Assembly (NCBI RefSeq): GCF_014642835.1
Contig: NZ_BMJA01000001.1
Span: 1,165,102 to 1,229,101, forward strand
From: Dyella nitratireducens
GTDB taxonomy: Bacteria; Pseudomonadota; Gammaproteobacteria; Xanthomonadales; Rhodanobacteraceae
Length of the DNA: 64,000 nt
Direction of reading: 5' to 3'
Position numbers and translations under genes: made by a program. The notes beneath the pieces were generated by a model. The model worked only from the letters and a program-made list of their open reading frames with translations. It was not told the origin of the DNA and ran no database searches. Shown piece after piece: positions 22,124 to 34,861 of this stretch (position 1 is its first letter; the number at the start of each line of letters is the position of its first letter).

Positions 22124-22157
22124 ACAAAAAAAGCGCCCGCAATGGGCGCTTTTTTGT
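22124..22157. terminator. Bidirectional rho-independent terminator
   Basis: The stem AAAAAAGCGCCC / GGGCGCTTTTTT with loop GCAAT has A- and T-runs on its two sides. It ends the E1/E2 operon; the convergent MFS gene lies beyond it. Confidence 0.93.
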
Positions 22158-22250: not shown

Positions 22251-23654
22251 CTAGGCTTTGGCGCAATCGTTCAAACGCAAGTGCCGCGTTTCCGGTGCCC
22301 AGAAGATCGACACTGCCATGCCGACGACCAGCACGACTGCCAGCGCCATCATTGATACTTGCAGCCCGAAGACTTTCATGCTGATCGGCAGCAGGAAGAC
22401 GCCCACCGCTGAGCCAAGACGGCTGCATGCGATGGCAAACCCCACACCACTGGCTCGCACTTCCGTAGGAAAGCATTCGGGTGGGTATACACCGACCAGG
22501 TTGGACACGGCCGACAGCGTGGCGGTGAATAGTGCGAACGACGCCACCATGGCCAGGGATGCCGATGCGGGCAGTAGGCTCAGCAACGCCAATGACGCCG
22601 CAGTGATAGCGAAAGAACTGATCAAAAACGTGCGTCGCTGCAGCTTGACCGTCAACCAGATGCCCGCCACTGCCCCCGCTACCAACAGGCCGTTCAGTAG
22701 AAGGTCCGCGCCACTGTCGTCCGGTAGGTGAATGATCTGCAGGATGCTCGGTAAAAAGGTGTAAATCGCAAAATACGGAATCACCAAACACACGAAGAAG
22801 ATGCAATTGAATGCTGTTCGGCGAATCATGTCGCGTTGGAACAGACGTGCGAAACCGCCCGAAACGTGGTCATCGTCGCGTGCACTGATATCCAGCACCA
22901 CCTCTGGGCCGAAATGCTTCTTTACCACGGCATCCGCTTCGGCTTGGCGCCCCTTGTTGAACAGCCAACGCGGTGATTCCGGCGTACCCATGCGCAAGAT
23001 CAGCACGATCAACGCAGGTACACCGCTCGAGGCTAGCAGCCAGCGCCACGCATCGGGATCGGTCGAGTGCTGCACGAAATGCATGCCAATCAGGTTGGCC
23101 ACCACGTAACCAACGGTCCATATGACACTGAATGAGCCAAGTAACATGCCGCGATGTTTGCGCGGCGAGAACTCGGCAAGCATGGCGTGCCCCACCGCAA
23201 AATCCCCACCCATACCCAAGCCCAGCAAGGCGCGTAGCAGGCACAGCATCAGCGGCGTGTCGACATAGAATTGCGCGAAGGCCGCGGCGGTGATGATCAC
23301 GAAGCTGAGCAGGAAGATCTTTTGCCTGCCTACCCGATCGGATAGCCAGCCGAACAGAAGGCTGCCGAGAAAGATGCCTAGGAGTGTGGAGCTGCCGATC
23401 AGGCCTTCCCATAACGCGCGGTGTTCCGCCTGCACGCCTGGTATCTGATCCACGAAAGGCGTCAAAGCATAGGCAATGGTGCCGATCGCGTAGCCTTCCG
23501 TAAGGTGCGCACCGAAAGTAAGCGCGGCGATCTTGCAATGGAAGAAGTTGAGCGGCACGTCATCCAGCAGAATCTTTCCAGCTCTCTGTCTGGCGCCTTC
23601 CCCGTAGCCGGCTGGTGCCTTCGCAACCAGTGTCTGTCCATCTCCGCTACCCAT
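22251..23654 (-). CDS. MFS transporter (sugar/metabolite:H+ symporter group)
   Basis: 467 residues with about 12 membrane helices. Family signs: GWLSDRVGRQK (the loop 2-3 MFS motif), RALLGLGMGGDFAVGHAMLAEFSPRKHRG (sugar-porter-like signature), PESPRWL after helix 6 and PTEVRASGVGFAIACSRLGS in the second half. The ATG at 23654 has AGGAGG a few bases upstream, better than the ATG at 23669. It lies 72 bases after the aldehyde dehydrogenase gene and is probably the last gene of the fae-akr-aldh-mfs operon. Substrate unknown; a small organic acid or aromatic/aldehyde product is likely from context. Confidence 0.88.
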   Translation of the reverse strand: MGSGDGQTLVAKAPAGYGEGARQRAGKILLDDVPLNFFHCKIAALTFGAHLTEGYAIGTIAYALTPFVDQIPGVQAEHRALWEGLIGSSTLLGIFLGSLLFGWLSDRVGRQKIFLLSFVIITAAAFAQFYVDTPLMLCLLRALLGLGMGGDFAVGHAMLAEFSPRKHRGMLLGSFSVIWTVGYVVANLIGMHFVQHSTDPDAWRWLLASSGVPALIVLILRMGTPESPRWLFNKGRQAEADAVVKKHFGPEVVLDISARDDDHVSGGFARLFQRDMIRRTAFNCIFFVCLVIPYFAIYTFLPSILQIIHLPDDSGADLLLNGLLVAGAVAGIWLTVKLQRRTFLISSFAITAASLALLSLLPASASLAMVASFALFTATLSAVSNLVGVYPPECFPTEVRASGVGFAIACSRLGSAVGVFLLPISMKVFGLQVSMMALAVVLVVGMAVSIFWAPETRHLRLNDCAKA

Positions 23655-23726
23655 GGCTCCTCCTTCCATTGCGGGGCGCGGGCTGCGCCCCCGTTGCATA
23701 CGCCGTTGGTGTGCCTCGTTTTCTCT

Positions 23727-25190
23727 TTAACCGTCTAGACCACCTAACATGAGGTACTTCAGCTCCATGTACTCGTCGATACCGTATTTGGAGCCCTCAC
23801 GGCCAAGGCCGGATTCCTTTACGCCCCCGAACGGGGCCACTTCGGTGGAAATGATCCCCTCGTTGATGCCCACCATGCCGCTTTCCAGCGCGCCGGCCAC
23901 GCGCCAGCTGCGGGCGATATCACGCGTGTAAAAATAAGCAGCCAGGCCATAAGGCGTACCGTTGGCTGCGGTCACGACTTCTTCCTCGGAGTCGAAACGG
24001 AAACAGGCGGCGACCGGGCCGAAGGTTTCTTCCTGAGCGATCAGCATGCCGTGCGTGGCATCCACTAGCACGGTCGGTTCGAAGAACGTGCCACCCAACG
24101 CATGCGGCTTACCGCCCATAAGAACACGCGCTCCTTTGACCACGGCATCCGCCACATGCTCCTGCACTTTGATCAACGCAGCCCGGTTGATCAACGGGCC
24201 TTGCTCGAAGTCGCCGGCGAGTGCATCGCCGACGCGCAGCCTACTTACAGCATCCACCAGTGCCTGGGTAAAAGCTTTATAAATGCCGTTTTGCACATAG
24301 AAGCGGTTCACGCAGACACAGGTCTGTCCTGTATTGCGGAATTTGGACGCGATCGCACCGCGCACCGCTGCATCGATATCGGCATCATCAAACACGATGA
24401 AGGGTGCGTTGCCACCCAATTCGAGCGAAAGCTTCTTGAGCGTATCCGAGCACTGACGCGCCAGCAGCTTCCCGGTACGGGTGGAACCCGTAAACGAAAG
24501 CTTGCGCACGATGCTGGAACCCGTAAGCACAGTACCGATGGCTATGGCATCACCGGAAACAATGTTGAACACACCCGCAGGAATCTCGGCGAGTTCAGCC
24601 AGCACGGCCAGTGCGAAGGCGGACAGCGGCGTTTCCTCCGAAGGCTTGAGCACCATGGTGCAACCGGCAGCCAACGCAGGCGCCGCTTTGCGGGTGATCA
24701 TGGCGAGCGGAAAGTTCCATGGCGTGATGGCGGCGACGACGCCAATCGGCTCACGTACGACCAGAATCTTCGCGTGTGGTGACGGACTGGGAATGACGTC
24801 GCCATAAGCGCGTTTGGCCTCTTCAGCGAACCACTCGAGGAAGCTCGCCGCATACGCAACTTCGCCGCGAGCCTCGGCCAGAGGCTTGCCTTGTTCGCGC
24901 GACAACAACTCAGCCAAGGCTTCGCGATGCACCAACATCAACTCGCCCCAACGGCGCATCCTGCTGCTTCGTTCTTTCGCAGTCAGCGCACGCCAGGCGG
25001 GAAACGCTTTGGCGGCGGCATCCACGGCTTCTTGTGCCTCGGCGCGACCACCTTTGGCTACCTCGGCAACGACGGAACCAGTCGCCGGGTTATAGACGGG
25101 ATAGGTTTCCGAACTGCCGCGCCAATGGCCATCGATGTAATGGCCATTGCGCAGAAGGCTGGTCTCAATGCTCCGATCGCCGTCGTTCAT
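23727..25190 (-). CDS. NAD(P)-dependent aldehyde dehydrogenase (succinate-semialdehyde dehydrogenase-like)
   Basis: 487 residues. ALDH motifs: PWNFPLAMITRKAAPALAAGCTMVLKPSEETP (cofactor binding), FTGSTRTGKLL, the catalytic Glu in LSLELGGNAPFIVF, and the catalytic Cys in FRNTGQTCVCVNRFYV. The C-terminal APFGGVKESGLGREGSKYGIDEYMELKYL is typical of GabD-like enzymes, but substrate is open. AGGAG stands 8 bases before the ATG, and the start overlaps the stop of the upstream aldo/keto reductase gene as ATGA. With fae and the reductase it suggests processing of an aldehyde. Confidence 0.9.
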   Translation of the reverse strand: MNDGDRSIETSLLRNGHYIDGHWRGSSETYPVYNPATGSVVAEVAKGGRAEAQEAVDAAAKAFPAWRALTAKERSSRMRRWGELMLVHREALAELLSREQGKPLAEARGEVAYAASFLEWFAEEAKRAYGDVIPSPSPHAKILVVREPIGVVAAITPWNFPLAMITRKAAPALAAGCTMVLKPSEETPLSAFALAVLAELAEIPAGVFNIVSGDAIAIGTVLTGSSIVRKLSFTGSTRTGKLLARQCSDTLKKLSLELGGNAPFIVFDDADIDAAVRGAIASKFRNTGQTCVCVNRFYVQNGIYKAFTQALVDAVSRLRVGDALAGDFEQGPLINRAALIKVQEHVADAVVKGARVLMGGKPHALGGTFFEPTVLVDATHGMLIAQEETFGPVAACFRFDSEEEVVTAANGTPYGLAAYFYTRDIARSWRVAGALESGMVGINEGIISTEVAPFGGVKESGLGREGSKYGIDEYMELKYLMLGGLDG

Positions 25191-26224
25191 GCTGTTTTCT
25201 CCTTGTCATTTGCAAACCATCCCTGTGCCGGACGCGGCTCACGCGCGATGCGGCGACCTGCGGTGTAATCGTTAATCAGATCACACGGCGTGTAGTTGCG
25301 TTCCAGTTCGAACAGATCGTCTTCGTCCAGCTTCATGTTGAGCGCAGCCATTGCACTGTCGAACTGAGTGGGAGAATCCGCACCCACCAGCATGCTGGTG
25401 ACATGCGGCCGCGCCAGCACCCAAGCCTGAGCAATCTGCGCAGCCGACACGCCGTGACGCTCGGCTACACGTGCAGCCGATGCAGCAACCGCCTGAGAGG
25501 CGTCATCACCGTACATTTGCGCGGTGAAGAAATCCGTCTTGTTTCGAGTGGATTTCACATCGCCTGTAAGCAGGCCGCGTGCCAGCGGGCTGAACACCGA
25601 CACGCCGATGCCCTGGTCGGCGCAGTAAGGAATCATCTCGCGCTCTTCCTCGCGATAGGCAAGATTGAGCTGCAATTGCATGTTGATGGGCTTGTCCCAG
25701 CCATGCCGTTCACACGCCTGGATGATCTTGGCGAGCTGCCAGGTGTACATGGTGGACACACCGACGTAGCGTGCCTTGCCACTGCGGACGATGTCGTTCA
25801 ACGTACCCATGGTTTCTTCCACAGGCGTATTCACGTCGAAGTAATGCAGCATGTAGATGTCGACGTAATCCATGCGCAAACGGGTGAGCGAACCGTCGAT
25901 GCCATCCATGACGTGCTTGCGCGAATGGCCACCCGCGTTGGGATAGCTGCCCATGTCGTAGCCCACCTTGGTGGTGATCACGACTTCCTCGCGCCGCACC
26001 AGGCGCTTGAGAATGCGGCCGACCACTTCCTCACCCACGCCGGTGGAATAGAAATCCGCCAGATCAATGAAATTGACACCGGCCTCGAGCGCGTGCCGCA
26101 CGATCGGCTCGCTCTGCGCTTCGTCAAAAATCCACGGTTTCCACTGCGGTGTACCCATGTTCATGGTGCCGAGGCAAAGCCGTGACACCTCAAGGCCGGA
26201 TCGGCCGAGACGTACGTATTCCAT
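25187..26224 (-). CDS. Aldo/keto reductase
   Basis: 345 residues, NADPH-dependent reductase of the AKR superfamily (TIM barrel). The catalytic tetrad is visible: Asp in NFIDLADFYSTG, Tyr in the same stretch, Lys in VVITTKVGYDMG, and His in YMLHYFDVNTP. The NADP-binding C-terminal part holds SVFSPLARGLLTG. The ATG at 26224 is preceded by AGGAG (spacing 6). It begins 19 bases after the fae stop and overlaps the dehydrogenase start by four bases, so the three are co-transcribed. Confidence 0.93.
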   Translation of the reverse strand: MEYVRLGRSGLEVSRLCLGTMNMGTPQWKPWIFDEAQSEPIVRHALEAGVNFIDLADFYSTGVGEEVVGRILKRLVRREEVVITTKVGYDMGSYPNAGGHSRKHVMDGIDGSLTRLRMDYVDIYMLHYFDVNTPVEETMGTLNDIVRSGKARYVGVSTMYTWQLAKIIQACERHGWDKPINMQLQLNLAYREEEREMIPYCADQGIGVSVFSPLARGLLTGDVKSTRNKTDFFTAQMYGDDASQAVAASAARVAERHGVSAAQIAQAWVLARPHVTSMLVGADSPTQFDSAMAALNMKLDEDDLFELERNYTPCDLINDYTAGRRIAREPRPAQGWFANDKEKTA

Positions 26225-26243
26225 GTGCGGCTCCTGCTGTCCC

Positions 26244-26765
26244 TCAAGCCTTGGGGGTGTAGAACGGATTGCTGACGTTGGCAGCCGCAGCGAACACATC
26301 CCTGCGATCCGGCAGGCCGAGCATCGCGGCGCGGATGGCGTTCTTGCAGGCGCGGTAGTTGTTCTCGTAGACAGCGTCGAGATCGTCGCAAGCAGGATTC
26401 ACCCAATTGGCCGACACGATGACCCAATCGTTGTTCGCCTCCGGCGGCAGCACACCCTCTTCCAGCGACTCCGCAACGGCCTTGGCGATGCCAGCCTGCG
26501 AGGCACCCCACGTAGCGTTGCCGTGGAATTCATTGGCGATCTGCGCCTTGTTGACGTACAGCGTCAGCGGTTTGGTGGGCACGCCCGGGCGGGCAATGAT
26601 CACGAACGGCGCATGCCCTGCAGAAGGTGTGGCCAGTGCGGTGGCGAATGCCTGCCCTGCAGGGCCATGGCGAGGACCGACCAGCACGTTGATGTGCGCG
26701 AGGTTGACGCCGGGTCCTTCGAATCCTTCACCAATGTAAAGCAGCTTGCTATCCGTTGCGCTCAT
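26244..26765 (-). CDS. fae: Formaldehyde-activating enzyme (Fae) homologue
   Basis: 173 residues. The core matches the Fae family: GEGFEGPGVNLAHINVLVGPRHGPAGQAF, with the catalytic histidine retained (LAHINV, about His24), then IARPGVPTKPLTLYVNKA, which corresponds to the conserved CKPNTLMFNK region. In methylotrophs Fae condenses formaldehyde with tetrahydromethanopterin. No other H4MPT-pathway gene is present in the window, and this copy heads an operon with an aldo/keto reductase, an aldehyde dehydrogenase and an MFS transporter. It may act on another aldehyde or cofactor, or simply bind formaldehyde. ATG at 26765 chosen; a GTG four codons upstream is possible. Confidence 0.85.
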   Translation of the reverse strand: MSATDSKLLYIGEGFEGPGVNLAHINVLVGPRHGPAGQAFATALATPSAGHAPFVIIARPGVPTKPLTLYVNKAQIANEFHGNATWGASQAGIAKAVAESLEEGVLPPEANNDWVIVSANWVNPACDDLDAVYENNYRACKNAIRAAMLGLPDRRDVFAAAANVSNPFYTPKA

Positions 26766-26997
26766 GTCTTCCGTCACCCCAAAAACCTTCGAAGGTTCGA
26801 TTGTGCGGTGGGCGTAGCGGATAAGTGAGCCAACTTGTTCCGATATAAAGCTCGGTGATTGCCGTATGTGTCGTACTGCTATCCCTACAAGAAACTCGTA
26901 TCTTTATCGCCGTGTAGTTTGGCAGCGGCTGGATTGAAAAACATGCTGGCAGGCGTGCTGCGTGAAAACGGCATACGCTTCCACCTGAAGCTTCCCA

Positions 26998-28380
26998 TCA
27001 AGCGATTTCCGCCGTCATCTGCAACGGCAGGCGCATGATGACTTCCAGGCCGCCATCACCCAGGTTTCCCGCCGTCACTTCCCCGCCATGGGCCTGCATC
27101 ACTCGCTGCACGATCGCCAGCCCCAGCCCGTGGCCGCTGGCTTGCGCAGCATTGGTGCCGCGGAAAAAGGGCCGGAACATGAGGTGCAACTCTTCCTCCG
27201 GCACACCAGGCCCGTTATCGCTAACACGCAGTTCGGCGAATGACTCACGATGTCCTAGCACGATCTGCACGACACCACCGGACGGACTGAACTTGATGGC
27301 ATTGGCGATCACGTTGTCCAGTGCGCGCTCAAGCAGAATGCTGCTGCCCTGCACGGTGGCCGGCCCATCATCCGTCATCTGCAAAGCAATACCGCGTGCT
27401 TCGGCATCGATGCGCGTAGCAGCAACGCGATCTCTGGTCAGCGCAACCAGATCGACCGATTCGCGCACCATTCCGGGCAAGCCGCCTTCCAGACGCGATA
27501 GCGCCAGCATCTCCGCGGTCATGCGGTCCATGCGGGAGATTTCATGCTCAGCGCGCTCGAAATGCGCAGCAGCCTCTTCCGGACTCACACTGTGCTGAGC
27601 CAGATCAAGAATCAGATGCAATCGCGCGAGCGGTGAGCGTAATTCGTGCGAGAGATCCTGCAGTACACCACGATCGTGCGCCACCAGATGTTCGATGCGC
27701 TCGGCCATGCCGTTGAAATCACGCGCGAGCTGACCGAGCTCGTCATGTTTGTTGCTCCAACGCCGATCCACGCGCGTCGTAAATTCGCCCGTGGCCATTT
27801 TGTGGGTGGCTTCGCGCATCGCTTCCACCGGCCGGGATACGCTGCGCGCCACCCACCAGCCGATGGCGGCGATCATCAATAGCGAAAGCCCCAACTGCAC
27901 GCCAAGCAAAATCTTTCCACGTGTCCGTGGAGGAATGCGCGAACGCGAACTGCTTACCGCCACAAGTTGCCGCACACGCCCGTCCGTACCTGTCACGTTC
28001 TGTACGGCGACGTAGAAGCCGGGCCACGGATGCAACGCGATGTCGTTGCCAGATGCCAGCCAATCCGGCAGCACATCGCGTATCGATGGCGGCAGACGTA
28101 TGTCGCGCAGGGGGACTCCTTTTTCATAGAGCGTGGCATCCACACCTTGTTCGCGTTGCTGCCTTACCCAGTCGTTCAGTCCACCAGGCCCTCCCTTTTC
28201 ATAGGCCTGTTCGGCGGCCTGCGCCAAGGCTGGCCAATCGAAGTCCTGTTGCATCGAAAAGGTAATGAAGCTGCGCGTCAGCAAGCCGCCGAGCATCAGC
28301 ACCAATACATTGGCGATGCAGACGGAAATGAGCAGGCGCCAGAACAGTGGGCTGCTAAAAGGGCTTTTGAAGGAACTCAT
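26998..28380 (-). CDS. cpxA: Envelope-stress sensor histidine kinase, CpxA-like
   Basis: 460 residues. Inner-membrane kinase with a first membrane helix (about 15-35), a periplasmic sensor of about 120 residues, a second helix (about 158-178), a HAMP domain, the dimerisation H-box LQDLSHELRSPLARL (phospho-accepting His245), and an ATPase domain with N box (ALDNVIANAIKFSP), SDNGPGVP and GHGLGLAIVQR. Its start overlaps the cpxR stop (ATGA). With the CpxR-like regulator and the divergent Spy/CpxP gene it forms a Cpx-type envelope stress system. The sensor domain is typical in size for CpxA. Confidence 0.88.
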   Translation of the reverse strand: MSSFKSPFSSPLFWRLLISVCIANVLVLMLGGLLTRSFITFSMQQDFDWPALAQAAEQAYEKGGPGGLNDWVRQQREQGVDATLYEKGVPLRDIRLPPSIRDVLPDWLASGNDIALHPWPGFYVAVQNVTGTDGRVRQLVAVSSSRSRIPPRTRGKILLGVQLGLSLLMIAAIGWWVARSVSRPVEAMREATHKMATGEFTTRVDRRWSNKHDELGQLARDFNGMAERIEHLVAHDRGVLQDLSHELRSPLARLHLILDLAQHSVSPEEAAAHFERAEHEISRMDRMTAEMLALSRLEGGLPGMVRESVDLVALTRDRVAATRIDAEARGIALQMTDDGPATVQGSSILLERALDNVIANAIKFSPSGGVVQIVLGHRESFAELRVSDNGPGVPEEELHLMFRPFFRGTNAAQASGHGLGLAIVQRVMQAHGGEVTAGNLGDGGLEVIMRLPLQMTAEIA

Positions 28381-29072
28381 GCCGGCGCCGCGCTATTGGG
28401 TACCAACACGTAACCGGCGCCGCGCACGGAATCAATGCGTGGCGCCTGCCCCGACGCTTCCGCCAGCTTGTGGCGAAGCCGGCTGACGTGCACGTCAATG
28501 CTGCGGTCGAAGCGCTCCAGCTCACGCCCCAATGCCACGCGTGTCAGCGAGGTCTTATCGATCACTTCACCGGCACGTTGCACCAGCAACAACAGCAGCG
28601 CGAATTCAGCACCCGTGAGGTTGAGTTCCTGTTCGCCGGCAAATGCACGCCGTTCACCAGGGTGCAAGCGCAATACACCGGCAGTGAGCTCGCCTACGCT
28701 TTCCACCGTGTGACGGCGCAATTGGGCGCGCACGCGTGCCAACAGTTCGCGCGGCAGGCATGGCTTGGAAAGATAATCGTCCGCGCCCAGTTCCAGACCG
28801 ACCACGCGATCCACCGGCTCGCCACGTCCGGACAACATGATTACCGGCAGGCGATACTGCGCACGCAAGTCGCGCAAGGTATCCAGGCCGCTGCGGCCAG
28901 GCATCATGACATCGAGAATCAAGAGATCCGGGCGCAAAGCCGGATCGCGCAGACGCGCCAGCACTCCTTCGCCATCGTGCACCACTTCCACCTGCAGGCC
29001 TTCGCGCCGCAGGTATTCGGCGAGCAGCGAACACAGCTCGCGATCGTCATCGCCAATCAATATTCGGGACAT
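28377..29072 (-). CDS. cpxR: OmpR-family response regulator, CpxR-like
   Basis: 231 residues. The receiver domain has the acidic pocket DDDREL, the phospho-acceptor Asp54 in LLILDVMMPGRSG, and Lys103 in DDYLSKP. Stretches such as DDDREL-x-SLL and GLELGADDYL are very close to E. coli CpxR. The C-terminal winged helix includes LTGAEFALLLLLVQRAGEVIDKTSL and RGAGYVLVP. It is divergent from the Spy-like gene with a CpxR-type box between them. The Shine-Dalgarno is weak. Confidence 0.92.
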   Translation of the reverse strand: MSRILIGDDDRELCSLLAEYLRREGLQVEVVHDGEGVLARLRDPALRPDLLILDVMMPGRSGLDTLRDLRAQYRLPVIMLSGRGEPVDRVVGLELGADDYLSKPCLPRELLARVRAQLRRHTVESVGELTAGVLRLHPGERRAFAGEQELNLTGAEFALLLLLVQRAGEVIDKTSLTRVALGRELERFDRSIDVHVSRLRHKLAEASGQAPRIDSVRGAGYVLVPNSAAPA

Positions 29073-34785: not shown

Positions 34786-34861
34786 TGGTGCCGACAGTCT
34801 GACTCGAACAGACGACCTACCGCTTACAAGGCGGTTGCTCTACCAACTGAGCTATGCCGGC
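34786..34861 (-). tRNA. tRNA-Thr (anticodon TGT)
   Basis: 76 bases on the minus strand including encoded CCA. The acceptor stem pairs GCCGGCA with TGTCGGC; the D arm is GCTC/GAGC; the anticodon arm is ACCGC-CTTGTAA-GCGGT with anticodon TGT; the T arm is GTCTG-TTCGAGT-CAGAC. All four helices are intact. It follows the SPOR-domain gene on the same strand. Confidence 0.95.

What the first reader, a model, noticed from the sequence alone, without database searches (positions are those of the whole stretch)
22251..26765. Orphan Fae operon: fae-AKR-ALDH-MFS
A formaldehyde-activating-enzyme homologue with its catalytic His (LAHINV) heads an operon with a reductase, a dehydrogenase and a transporter (gaps 19 bases, 4-base overlap, 72 bases). 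No H4MPT pathway gene is visible. The set could be a small aldehyde-handling pathway where Fae captures or senses an aldehyde, with reduction and oxidation branches and export/import of the product.
Basis: partly seen in the sequence, partly recalled or inferred. Interest (0 to 1): 0.72.

Follow-up and report, generated by a model that had tools for sequence, protein, structure and literature searches.

The report
Formaldehyde-enzyme relative in aldehyde operon
A soil bacterium carries a gene set in which a relative of a formaldehyde-capturing enzyme sits with two aldehyde-processing enzymes and a transporter, although marker genes of the cofactor pathway that enzyme normally serves are missing, which points to an unknown job for this branch of the enzyme family.

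Summary
Four minus-strand genes (22251-26765) encode a Fae-family protein (PF08714, 170.9 bits), an aldo/keto reductase, an ALDH5/succinate-semialdehyde-type dehydrogenase and an MFS transporter. The genome (99.97% complete, probably Dyella) has one Fae, no MCH, no FTR, and a glutathione-dependent formaldehyde dehydrogenase.

The set is a conserved cassette. Of the 80 best loci (Dyella, Burkholderiaceae), 71 have all four genes, 8 lack a detected transporter, 1 has fae plus an AKR fragment. In 50 of those 80 genomes, MCH occurs in 16, exactly those with a second, true-type Fae within 5 kb of mch; the orphan Fae is in all 50. In the genus, 9 of 16 genomes have it; in the other 7 the four genes are absent between aceF and a sensor kinase. 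Gene order varies in distant relatives, and the reductase family changes in Streptomyces, but an ALDH5-type gene stays nearby.

The Fae forms its own clade: the catalytic His is kept in 23/23, but three of six (recalled) H4MPT-site residues are replaced. Best reading: an H4MPT-independent Fae-like enzyme in a carboxylated-aldehyde module. Its reaction, acceptor and substrate are unproven. New variant of a known kind.

The parts
26244..26765 (-). fae-like gene, 173 aa, first gene of the operon
   Evidence: PF08714 170.9 bits, TIGR03126 146.6 bits; separate clade; ATG with GGAAG upstream, read by eye
25187..26224 (-). aldo/keto reductase gene, 345 aa
   Evidence: PF00248 237.8 bits; closest solved chains 7utf and 8hwn, E about 1e-58; directly downstream of fae in 80 of 80 loci, a fragment in L088 and split in L042
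23727..25190 (-). ALDH5-type (succinate-semialdehyde-dehydrogenase-like) gene, 487 aa
   Evidence: TIGR01780 685.6 bits; best solved match E. coli GabD 3jz4; catalytic and carboxylate-binding residues kept
22251..23654 (-). MFS transporter gene (ORF can also start at 23699)
   Evidence: PF00083 197 bits, PF07690 139.3 bits; found in 71 of 80 loci
22126..22155 (.). bidirectional terminator-like hairpin between the operon and the converging aceF gene
   Evidence: AGCGCCC-GCAAT-GGGCGCT between an A-run and a T-run, read by eye; no tool test

Best explanation
The four genes are a self-contained, horizontally moving cassette for one carboxylated aldehyde (a semialdehyde like succinate semialdehyde) or its hydroxy-acid or amine precursor. 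The transporter moves the acid, the reductase interconverts hydroxy-acid and semialdehyde, and the ALDH5-type dehydrogenase oxidises the semialdehyde irreversibly to a dicarboxylate (all inferred from family and residues). The Fae-like protein keeps the histidine, lysine and glutamine of the Fae active site but has a rebuilt cofactor pocket, and it occurs where H4MPT genes were not found. It most likely does the same chemistry, adding an aldehyde to (or freeing it from) an amine-bearing acceptor, with an acceptor that is not H4MPT. Shown: orphan status for the markers tested, separate clade, gene linkage, absence as a block in relatives, residue pattern. Inferred: substrate, acceptor and reaction. 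Rough likelihoods: independent of H4MPT 0.93; functionally tied to the AKR/ALDH pair 0.9; carboxylated semialdehyde as the pair's substrate 0.55; Fae as an aldehyde-acceptor enzyme with a non-H4MPT acceptor 0.5.
For: No MCH or FTR in the own genome. Among 50 of the 80 genomes with the cassette, 34 have no MCH; true-type Fae (233-239 bits) is in exactly the 16 with MCH, while the orphan is in 50 of 50. Linkage: AKR and ALDH in 79 of 80 loci and beside all 6 orphan-type Faes of a 398-genome phylum sample; other orders in G447 and Ensifer, another reductase family in Streptomyces. In 7 of 7 genus mates without fae, none of the four genes lies in the stretch with aceF and the kinase. Clade and residues: H, K, Q kept 23 of 23; D19 is N in 23 of 23; L48 and T68 replaced in 23 of 23 (residue roles recalled). 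R167, R285 and S448 of the ALDH match the carboxylate-binding triad of human SSADH, in 8 of 8 operon ALDHs.
Against: No activity data. The triad indicates an acidic aldehyde only, and is also used for other aldehydes. The same AKR/ALDH pair could work without Fae. In Streptomyces, 819 bases separate fae from the oxidoreductase gene, so linkage there is looser. The Fae is still over the TIGR03126 cut-off. The MCH absences in the 50 genomes rest on drafts whose completeness is not given.
Confidence: 0.45

Rival explanations
1. The orphan Fae joins formaldehyde to tetrahydrofolate (forms methylene-H4F) and recovers C1 units released when the imported compound is demethylated; AKR and ALDH process the remaining skeleton.
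For: H4F is the pterin C1 carrier general to bacteria (recalled). A role of Fae-like proteins in H4F-linked transfer has been suggested (PMC11748545, section 20). The changed pterin contacts would fit another pterin. The Streptomyces operon has a glycine-betaine-type ABC transporter.
Against: No demethylase gene in the cassette; glutathione-dependent formaldehyde dehydrogenase is present in the genome; no H4F-specific residue test was possible.
Confidence: 0.2
2. The orphan Fae senses or buffers an aldehyde and regulates or protects the pathway without turnover.
For: Sensing or regulatory roles were proposed for Fae-like proteins (PMC3728764 passages; PMC11748545 section 20).
Against: The catalytic His, Lys and Gln are all kept; no DNA-binding or signalling domain; LysR genes already lie near many copies of the cassette.
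Confidence: 0.12
3. The orphan Fae makes or breaks a carbon-carbon bond (aldol or retro-aldol of a hydroxymethyl acid), giving formaldehyde and the semialdehyde that AKR and ALDH then use.
For: It would explain why no pterin is needed and why Fae stays with an ALDH5-type gene in the relatives seen. Invariant Lys73 could in principle form a Schiff base (speculation).
Against: No Fae-fold protein is known to do this (recalled); no neighbour points to such a substrate.
Confidence: 0.1
4. It is an ordinary Fae that uses H4MPT taken up from outside or made by unrecognised genes, or a relic.
For: Over the TIGR03126 cut-off; 16 of 50 host genomes do have MCH.
Against: 34 of 50 host genomes have no MCH and the 16 that do have a separate true-type Fae beside mch; H4MPT-contact residues changed; low dN/dS of 0.04-0.08 speaks against a relic.
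Confidence: 0.06

Closest known systems
[quoted passage not shown]
   Same: Same family (phmmer E 5.8e-21); active-site His17, Lys66 and Gln83 equivalents kept
   Different: Separate clade; Asp19, Leu48 and Thr68 replaced; no mch or ftr in the genome; different operon partners
Fae-like proteins of unknown function (Fae2, Fae3; Groups 2-4 of PMC11748545)
   Same: Fae homologues outside the characterised groups, roles unknown
   Different: The Fae2/Fae3 discussed there occur in methylotrophs with H4MPT. Four rows that I labelled Fae2/3 lack the His (E or M) but keep Thr68; orphan rows are the reverse. Whether this clade is one of Groups 2-4 could not be seen, because the figure is not held
Succinate-semialdehyde dehydrogenase GabD / ALDH5
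   Same: 59.7% identity to E. coli GabD, same catalytic and carboxylate-binding residues; over the TIGR01780 cut-off
   Different: Below the GabD equivalog NF008415 (712.2 against 828); in an operon with Fae, AKR and MFS
Carnitine degradation (MSA-DH) and sulfolactaldehyde dehydrogenases
   Same: SSADH-like enzymes acting on an acidic aldehyde; the carnitine operon also has a LysR and a transporter gene (PMC11353897 and PMC10599462, passages)
   Different: The passages read name no fae; no oxygenase or aldolase gene is in this cassette

Membership tests
True Fae (H4MPT-dependent formaldehyde-activating enzyme) | Sequence family score | tested here: met
   PF08714 170.9 bits (cut-off 27); TIGR03126 146.6 (cut-off 118.05)
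True Fae (H4MPT-dependent formaldehyde-activating enzyme) | Catalytic histidine | tested here: met
   H24 in the window; 23 of 23 orphan rows; role of the residue recalled
True Fae (H4MPT-dependent formaldehyde-activating enzyme) | H4MPT-contact residues Asp19, Leu48, Lys66, Thr68, Gln83 (roles recalled from UniProt) | tested here: not met
   Lys66 and Gln83 kept in 23 of 23; Asp19, Leu48 and Thr68 replaced in 23 of 23; true rows keep all five in 25 of 25
True Fae (H4MPT-dependent formaldehyde-activating enzyme) | Falls in the true-Fae clade | tested here: not met
   23 orphan rows on one side of one branch, support 89/79, 88% of bootstrap trees
True Fae (H4MPT-dependent formaldehyde-activating enzyme) | H4MPT pathway in the same genome | tested here: not met
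   No PF02289 and no PF01913 in a 99.97% complete genome; the other pathway genes were not searched
True Fae (H4MPT-dependent formaldehyde-activating enzyme) | Condenses formaldehyde with H4MPT | not testable with these tools
   Needs an assay
ALDH5 / succinate-semialdehyde dehydrogenase | SSADH subfamily model | tested here: met
   TIGR01780 685.6 against 646.35
ALDH5 / succinate-semialdehyde dehydrogenase | Catalytic Cys/Glu and the Arg-Arg-Ser carboxylate site, plus ALDH5-specific Lys214 and Cys342 | tested here: met
   C291, E257, R167, R285, S448, K168, C293 in the window; roles from PMC11681614 passages. Cys342 is Ala in the Streptomyces enzyme
ALDH5 / succinate-semialdehyde dehydrogenase | Oxidises succinate semialdehyde | not testable with these tools
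   Needs an assay; the GabD equivalog cut-off was not reached (712.2 against 828)
Aldo/keto reductase | Family score and Asp-Tyr-Lys-His tetrad (recalled) | tested here: met
   PF00248 237.8 bits. In the window: DLADFYS, TTK and LHY motifs. The first two were found in 6 of 6 AKRs looked at, the His motif by my pattern in 2 of 6; the other 4 were not examined further
Fae-like Groups 2-4 of PMC11748545 | Place in the published tree | tested here: inconclusive
   The text names no Burkholderia or Streptomyces and the figure is not held

The most novel reading that the evidence does not exclude
The orphan clade is a new enzyme: a Fae that has left H4MPT behind and joins an aldehyde to (or frees it from) another acceptor, as one step of an undescribed, horizontally spread semialdehyde pathway in which the reductase is interchangeable between two unrelated families.
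Probability: 0.35. Interest if true: 0.75.

Novelty: new variant of a known kind. Interest (0 to 1): 0.55.

Why it matters
Fae-like proteins without a known role are an open question in C1 biology (PMC11748545 and PMC3728764, parts read). This clade gives a clean test bed: hosts in which no H4MPT marker was found, a fixed set of partner enzymes, close relatives without the cassette for comparison, and three residue changes that predict a different acceptor. It also warns that the annotation 'formaldehyde-activating enzyme' in Dyella and many Burkholderiaceae should not be read as methylotrophy or H4MPT metabolism.

Tried and rejected
Kinase and response regulator upstream (26998-29072) as part of the system: rejected, because the 7 fae-less genomes of the genus keep the kinase on the same stretch as aceF. 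A perfect 14-base palindrome before fae as an operator: in the window only, 1 of 81 upstream regions. A riboswitch: the only Rfam match in the window is a tRNA at 34789-34861. Flanking genes in Burkholderiaceae (H-NS, beta-lactamase family, sigma-54 activator, fimbrial genes, RF3, GntP permease) as pathway genes: they change between groups of loci. Structure of the orphan Fae: prediction too poor to use (mean pLDDT 44.2), so no fold search was made. Literature: ten counted searches of the held open-access library; no listing and no passage read describes this operon. One search was too broad to be informative and one search was about SSADH residues. Seen as passages and found not to bear on it: PMC13029678, PMC5209427, PMC11264596, PMC4776306, PMC3226654, PMC4744692, PMC8153426. 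A class sample of 369 genomes had an orphan-type Fae only in the own genome. A weak Fae hit in G063 was not followed.

Rows dropped and labels: of the loci I asked for, L176, L125 and L127 gave no usable stretch, so 54 rows remained. The label 'true' rests on 63-92% identity to M. extorquens Fae for 21 of 25 rows, not on a test of mch in each. Methylocystis b, which I had grouped with Fae2/3, fell inside the true clade, and Methylocystis a was in no group. The 50 genomes are my choice from the 80, made before any result. Some genomes recur under two handles: by contig and position, G072, G074, G076, G078, G080, G082 are those of L015, L011, L012, L016, L014, L013, and G529 and G602 look like G266 and G257.

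Full report
What is there. They belong to PF08714, PF00248, PF00171 and PF00083/PF07690. The Fae is over the cut-off of TIGR03126 and the ALDH over that of TIGR01780 (SSADH), though below the GabD equivalog model. A terminator-like hairpin lies between the operon and the converging aceF gene (by eye).

No H4MPT markers. The window's genome is 99.97% complete, with one Fae, no MCH and no FTR. It has a glutathione-dependent formaldehyde dehydrogenase, 734.2 bits against a cut-off of 543.95, so ordinary formaldehyde removal need not depend on this operon. The operon ALDH has no close second copy in the genome: the next best is 40% identical.

A conserved cassette. A scan of genome contigs kept the best 80 of 255 confirmed loci: six from the Dyella genus (two of them metagenome bins with other labels) and 74 from Paraburkholderia, Burkholderia, Caballeronia, Trinickia and Ralstonia, at 82-92% Fae identity. 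Downstream of Fae on the same strand, 71 of 80 have AKR, ALDH and MFS, 8 have AKR and ALDH without a detected MFS (one, L070, is cut by its contig end), and 1 (L088) has only an AKR fragment (details). Flanking genes further out differ between groups of loci. The window has no room for it between MFS and aceF.

Beyond that group. In an even sample of 398 genomes of the phylum, 6 (two of them already seen, by position) have an orphan-type Fae at 274-337 bits with my alignment A2; the next best score is 138. All 6 have AKR and ALDH beside it. G428 has Fae-AKR-ALDH-MFS at 68/75/73/58% identity and G447 has MFS-Fae-AKR-ALDH at 56/65/70/65%. By eye, not by test, the G447 neighbours look like the fur-glnS-nagE region of enterobacteria. 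Among plasmids, Ensifer adhaerens has AKR-Fae-ALDH followed by a LysR-like gene. Streptomyces clavuligerus (16 plasmid records) has a glycine-betaine-type ABC transporter, Fae, then after 819 bases a beta-hydroxyacid-dehydrogenase-type oxidoreductase (PF03446/PF14833) and an ALDH annotated as SSADH. So Fae stays near an ALDH5-type gene while order, transporter and even the reductase family change. In a class sample of 369 genomes only the own genome had the orphan type, so it is patchy outside Burkholderiaceae and Dyella.

Gain or loss as a block. Nine of 16 genomes of the genus have the Fae. In the other seven, located through the kinase gene, none of the four genes was found in the 10.5 kb taken, and aceF and the kinase lie 74-895 bases apart in five, about 2.3 kb apart in L160 and about 4.5 kb apart in L164. 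The four genes are therefore the unit, and the two-component system is not part of it.

Independence from H4MPT. I submitted 50 of the 80 genomes to MCH and Fae searches. MCH occurs in 16 of 50. A Fae of 233-239 bits occurs in exactly those 16, each within 5 kb of an mch on the same contig; the orphan Fae (161-174 bits) occurs in all 50 and in those 16 lies on another contig than the mch next to true Fae or more than 100 kb away. Against a clean split: one MCH-negative genome (G253) has a second Fae-like protein of 185 bits and another (G269) a 36-bit fragment; further Fae-like copies of 190-203 bits occur in five MCH-positive genomes. The completeness of these genomes is not given.

A separate Fae clade with a changed pocket. 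A tree of 54 rows puts the 23 orphan rows on one side of one branch (89/79; 88% of bootstrap trees) with a long stem; the Ensifer and Streptomyces rows are long, so their place is less sure. At six positions that I recall from UniProt as active site (17) and H4MPT contacts (19, 48, 66, 68, 83), the true rows read H, D, L, K, T, Q in 25 of 25. Orphan rows keep H, K and Q in 23 of 23 and have no D, L or T: N 23; V 20, M 2, Q 1; Q 17, E 3, P 2, V 1. Many further positions are fixed differently in the two groups.

What the partners say. The ALDH is 59.7% identical to E. coli GabD and keeps the catalytic pair and the Arg213/Arg334/Ser498 equivalents (R167, R285, S448), as do all 8 operon ALDHs examined, the Streptomyces one included. 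In human SSADH these three bind the carboxylate of the semialdehyde (PMC11681614, passages). Equivalent residues bind malic semialdehyde (PMC11353897, passages) and, for the two Arg, are proposed for sulfolactaldehyde (PMC10599462, passage), so they point to an acidic aldehyde rather than to one substrate. Both AKRs and beta-hydroxyacid dehydrogenases include known semialdehyde reductases (recalled). dN/dS of the window against six relatives is 0.04-0.08 for Fae, 0.07-0.10 for AKR, 0.05-0.08 for ALDH, 0.07-0.11 for MFS and 0.11-0.16 for the kinase; dS is often above 1, so these are rough.

Literature. Fae-like proteins of unknown function are known. Single fae2 and fae3 deletions had no growth effect in Methyloversatilis (PMC5023235, passages). 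A five-group tree leaves Groups 2-4 without function and mentions sensing or H4F roles (PMC11748545, sections 12 and 20 and passages). Additional functions were proposed in Methylophilaceae (PMC3728764, passages). The searches of the held library listed no paper that I recognised as describing a Fae-AKR-ALDH operon; most subscription journals are not held.

Verdict. What the Fae-like protein does remains inferred. New variant of a known kind; interest 0.55.

Noticed in passing
   Followed up: partly
G253:C8:10850-11323 (genome of L044, Paraburkholderia silviterrae): A second Fae-like protein of 185 bits in a genome without an MCH match; possibly another orphan type.
   Followed up: no
L042, L053 and L022: AKR and/or MFS matches are split into pieces in Paraburkholderia symbiont bins (L042, L053) and MFS in P. 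elongata (L022), which may be decaying genes or assembly errors.
   Followed up: no
L095 5308-6492 (Methylocystis iwaonis plasmid): Two adjacent fae genes on a plasmid; both fall in the true-Fae clade in my tree.
   Followed up: partly
L010 (G063), match 1501-1773: A weak Fae match (E 4.2e-4, 21.9 bits, below the cut-off) inside a 794-aa open frame in another genus of the family.
   Followed up: no
window 26784-26797: A perfect 14-base palindrome AACCTTCGAAGGTT just upstream of fae, absent upstream of fae in the 80 other loci.
   Followed up: yes
L160 and L164 between aceF and the kinase: The sites without the cassette hold about 2.3 kb (L160) and 4.5 kb (L164) of other DNA there, so this spot may accept insertions repeatedly.
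   Followed up: no
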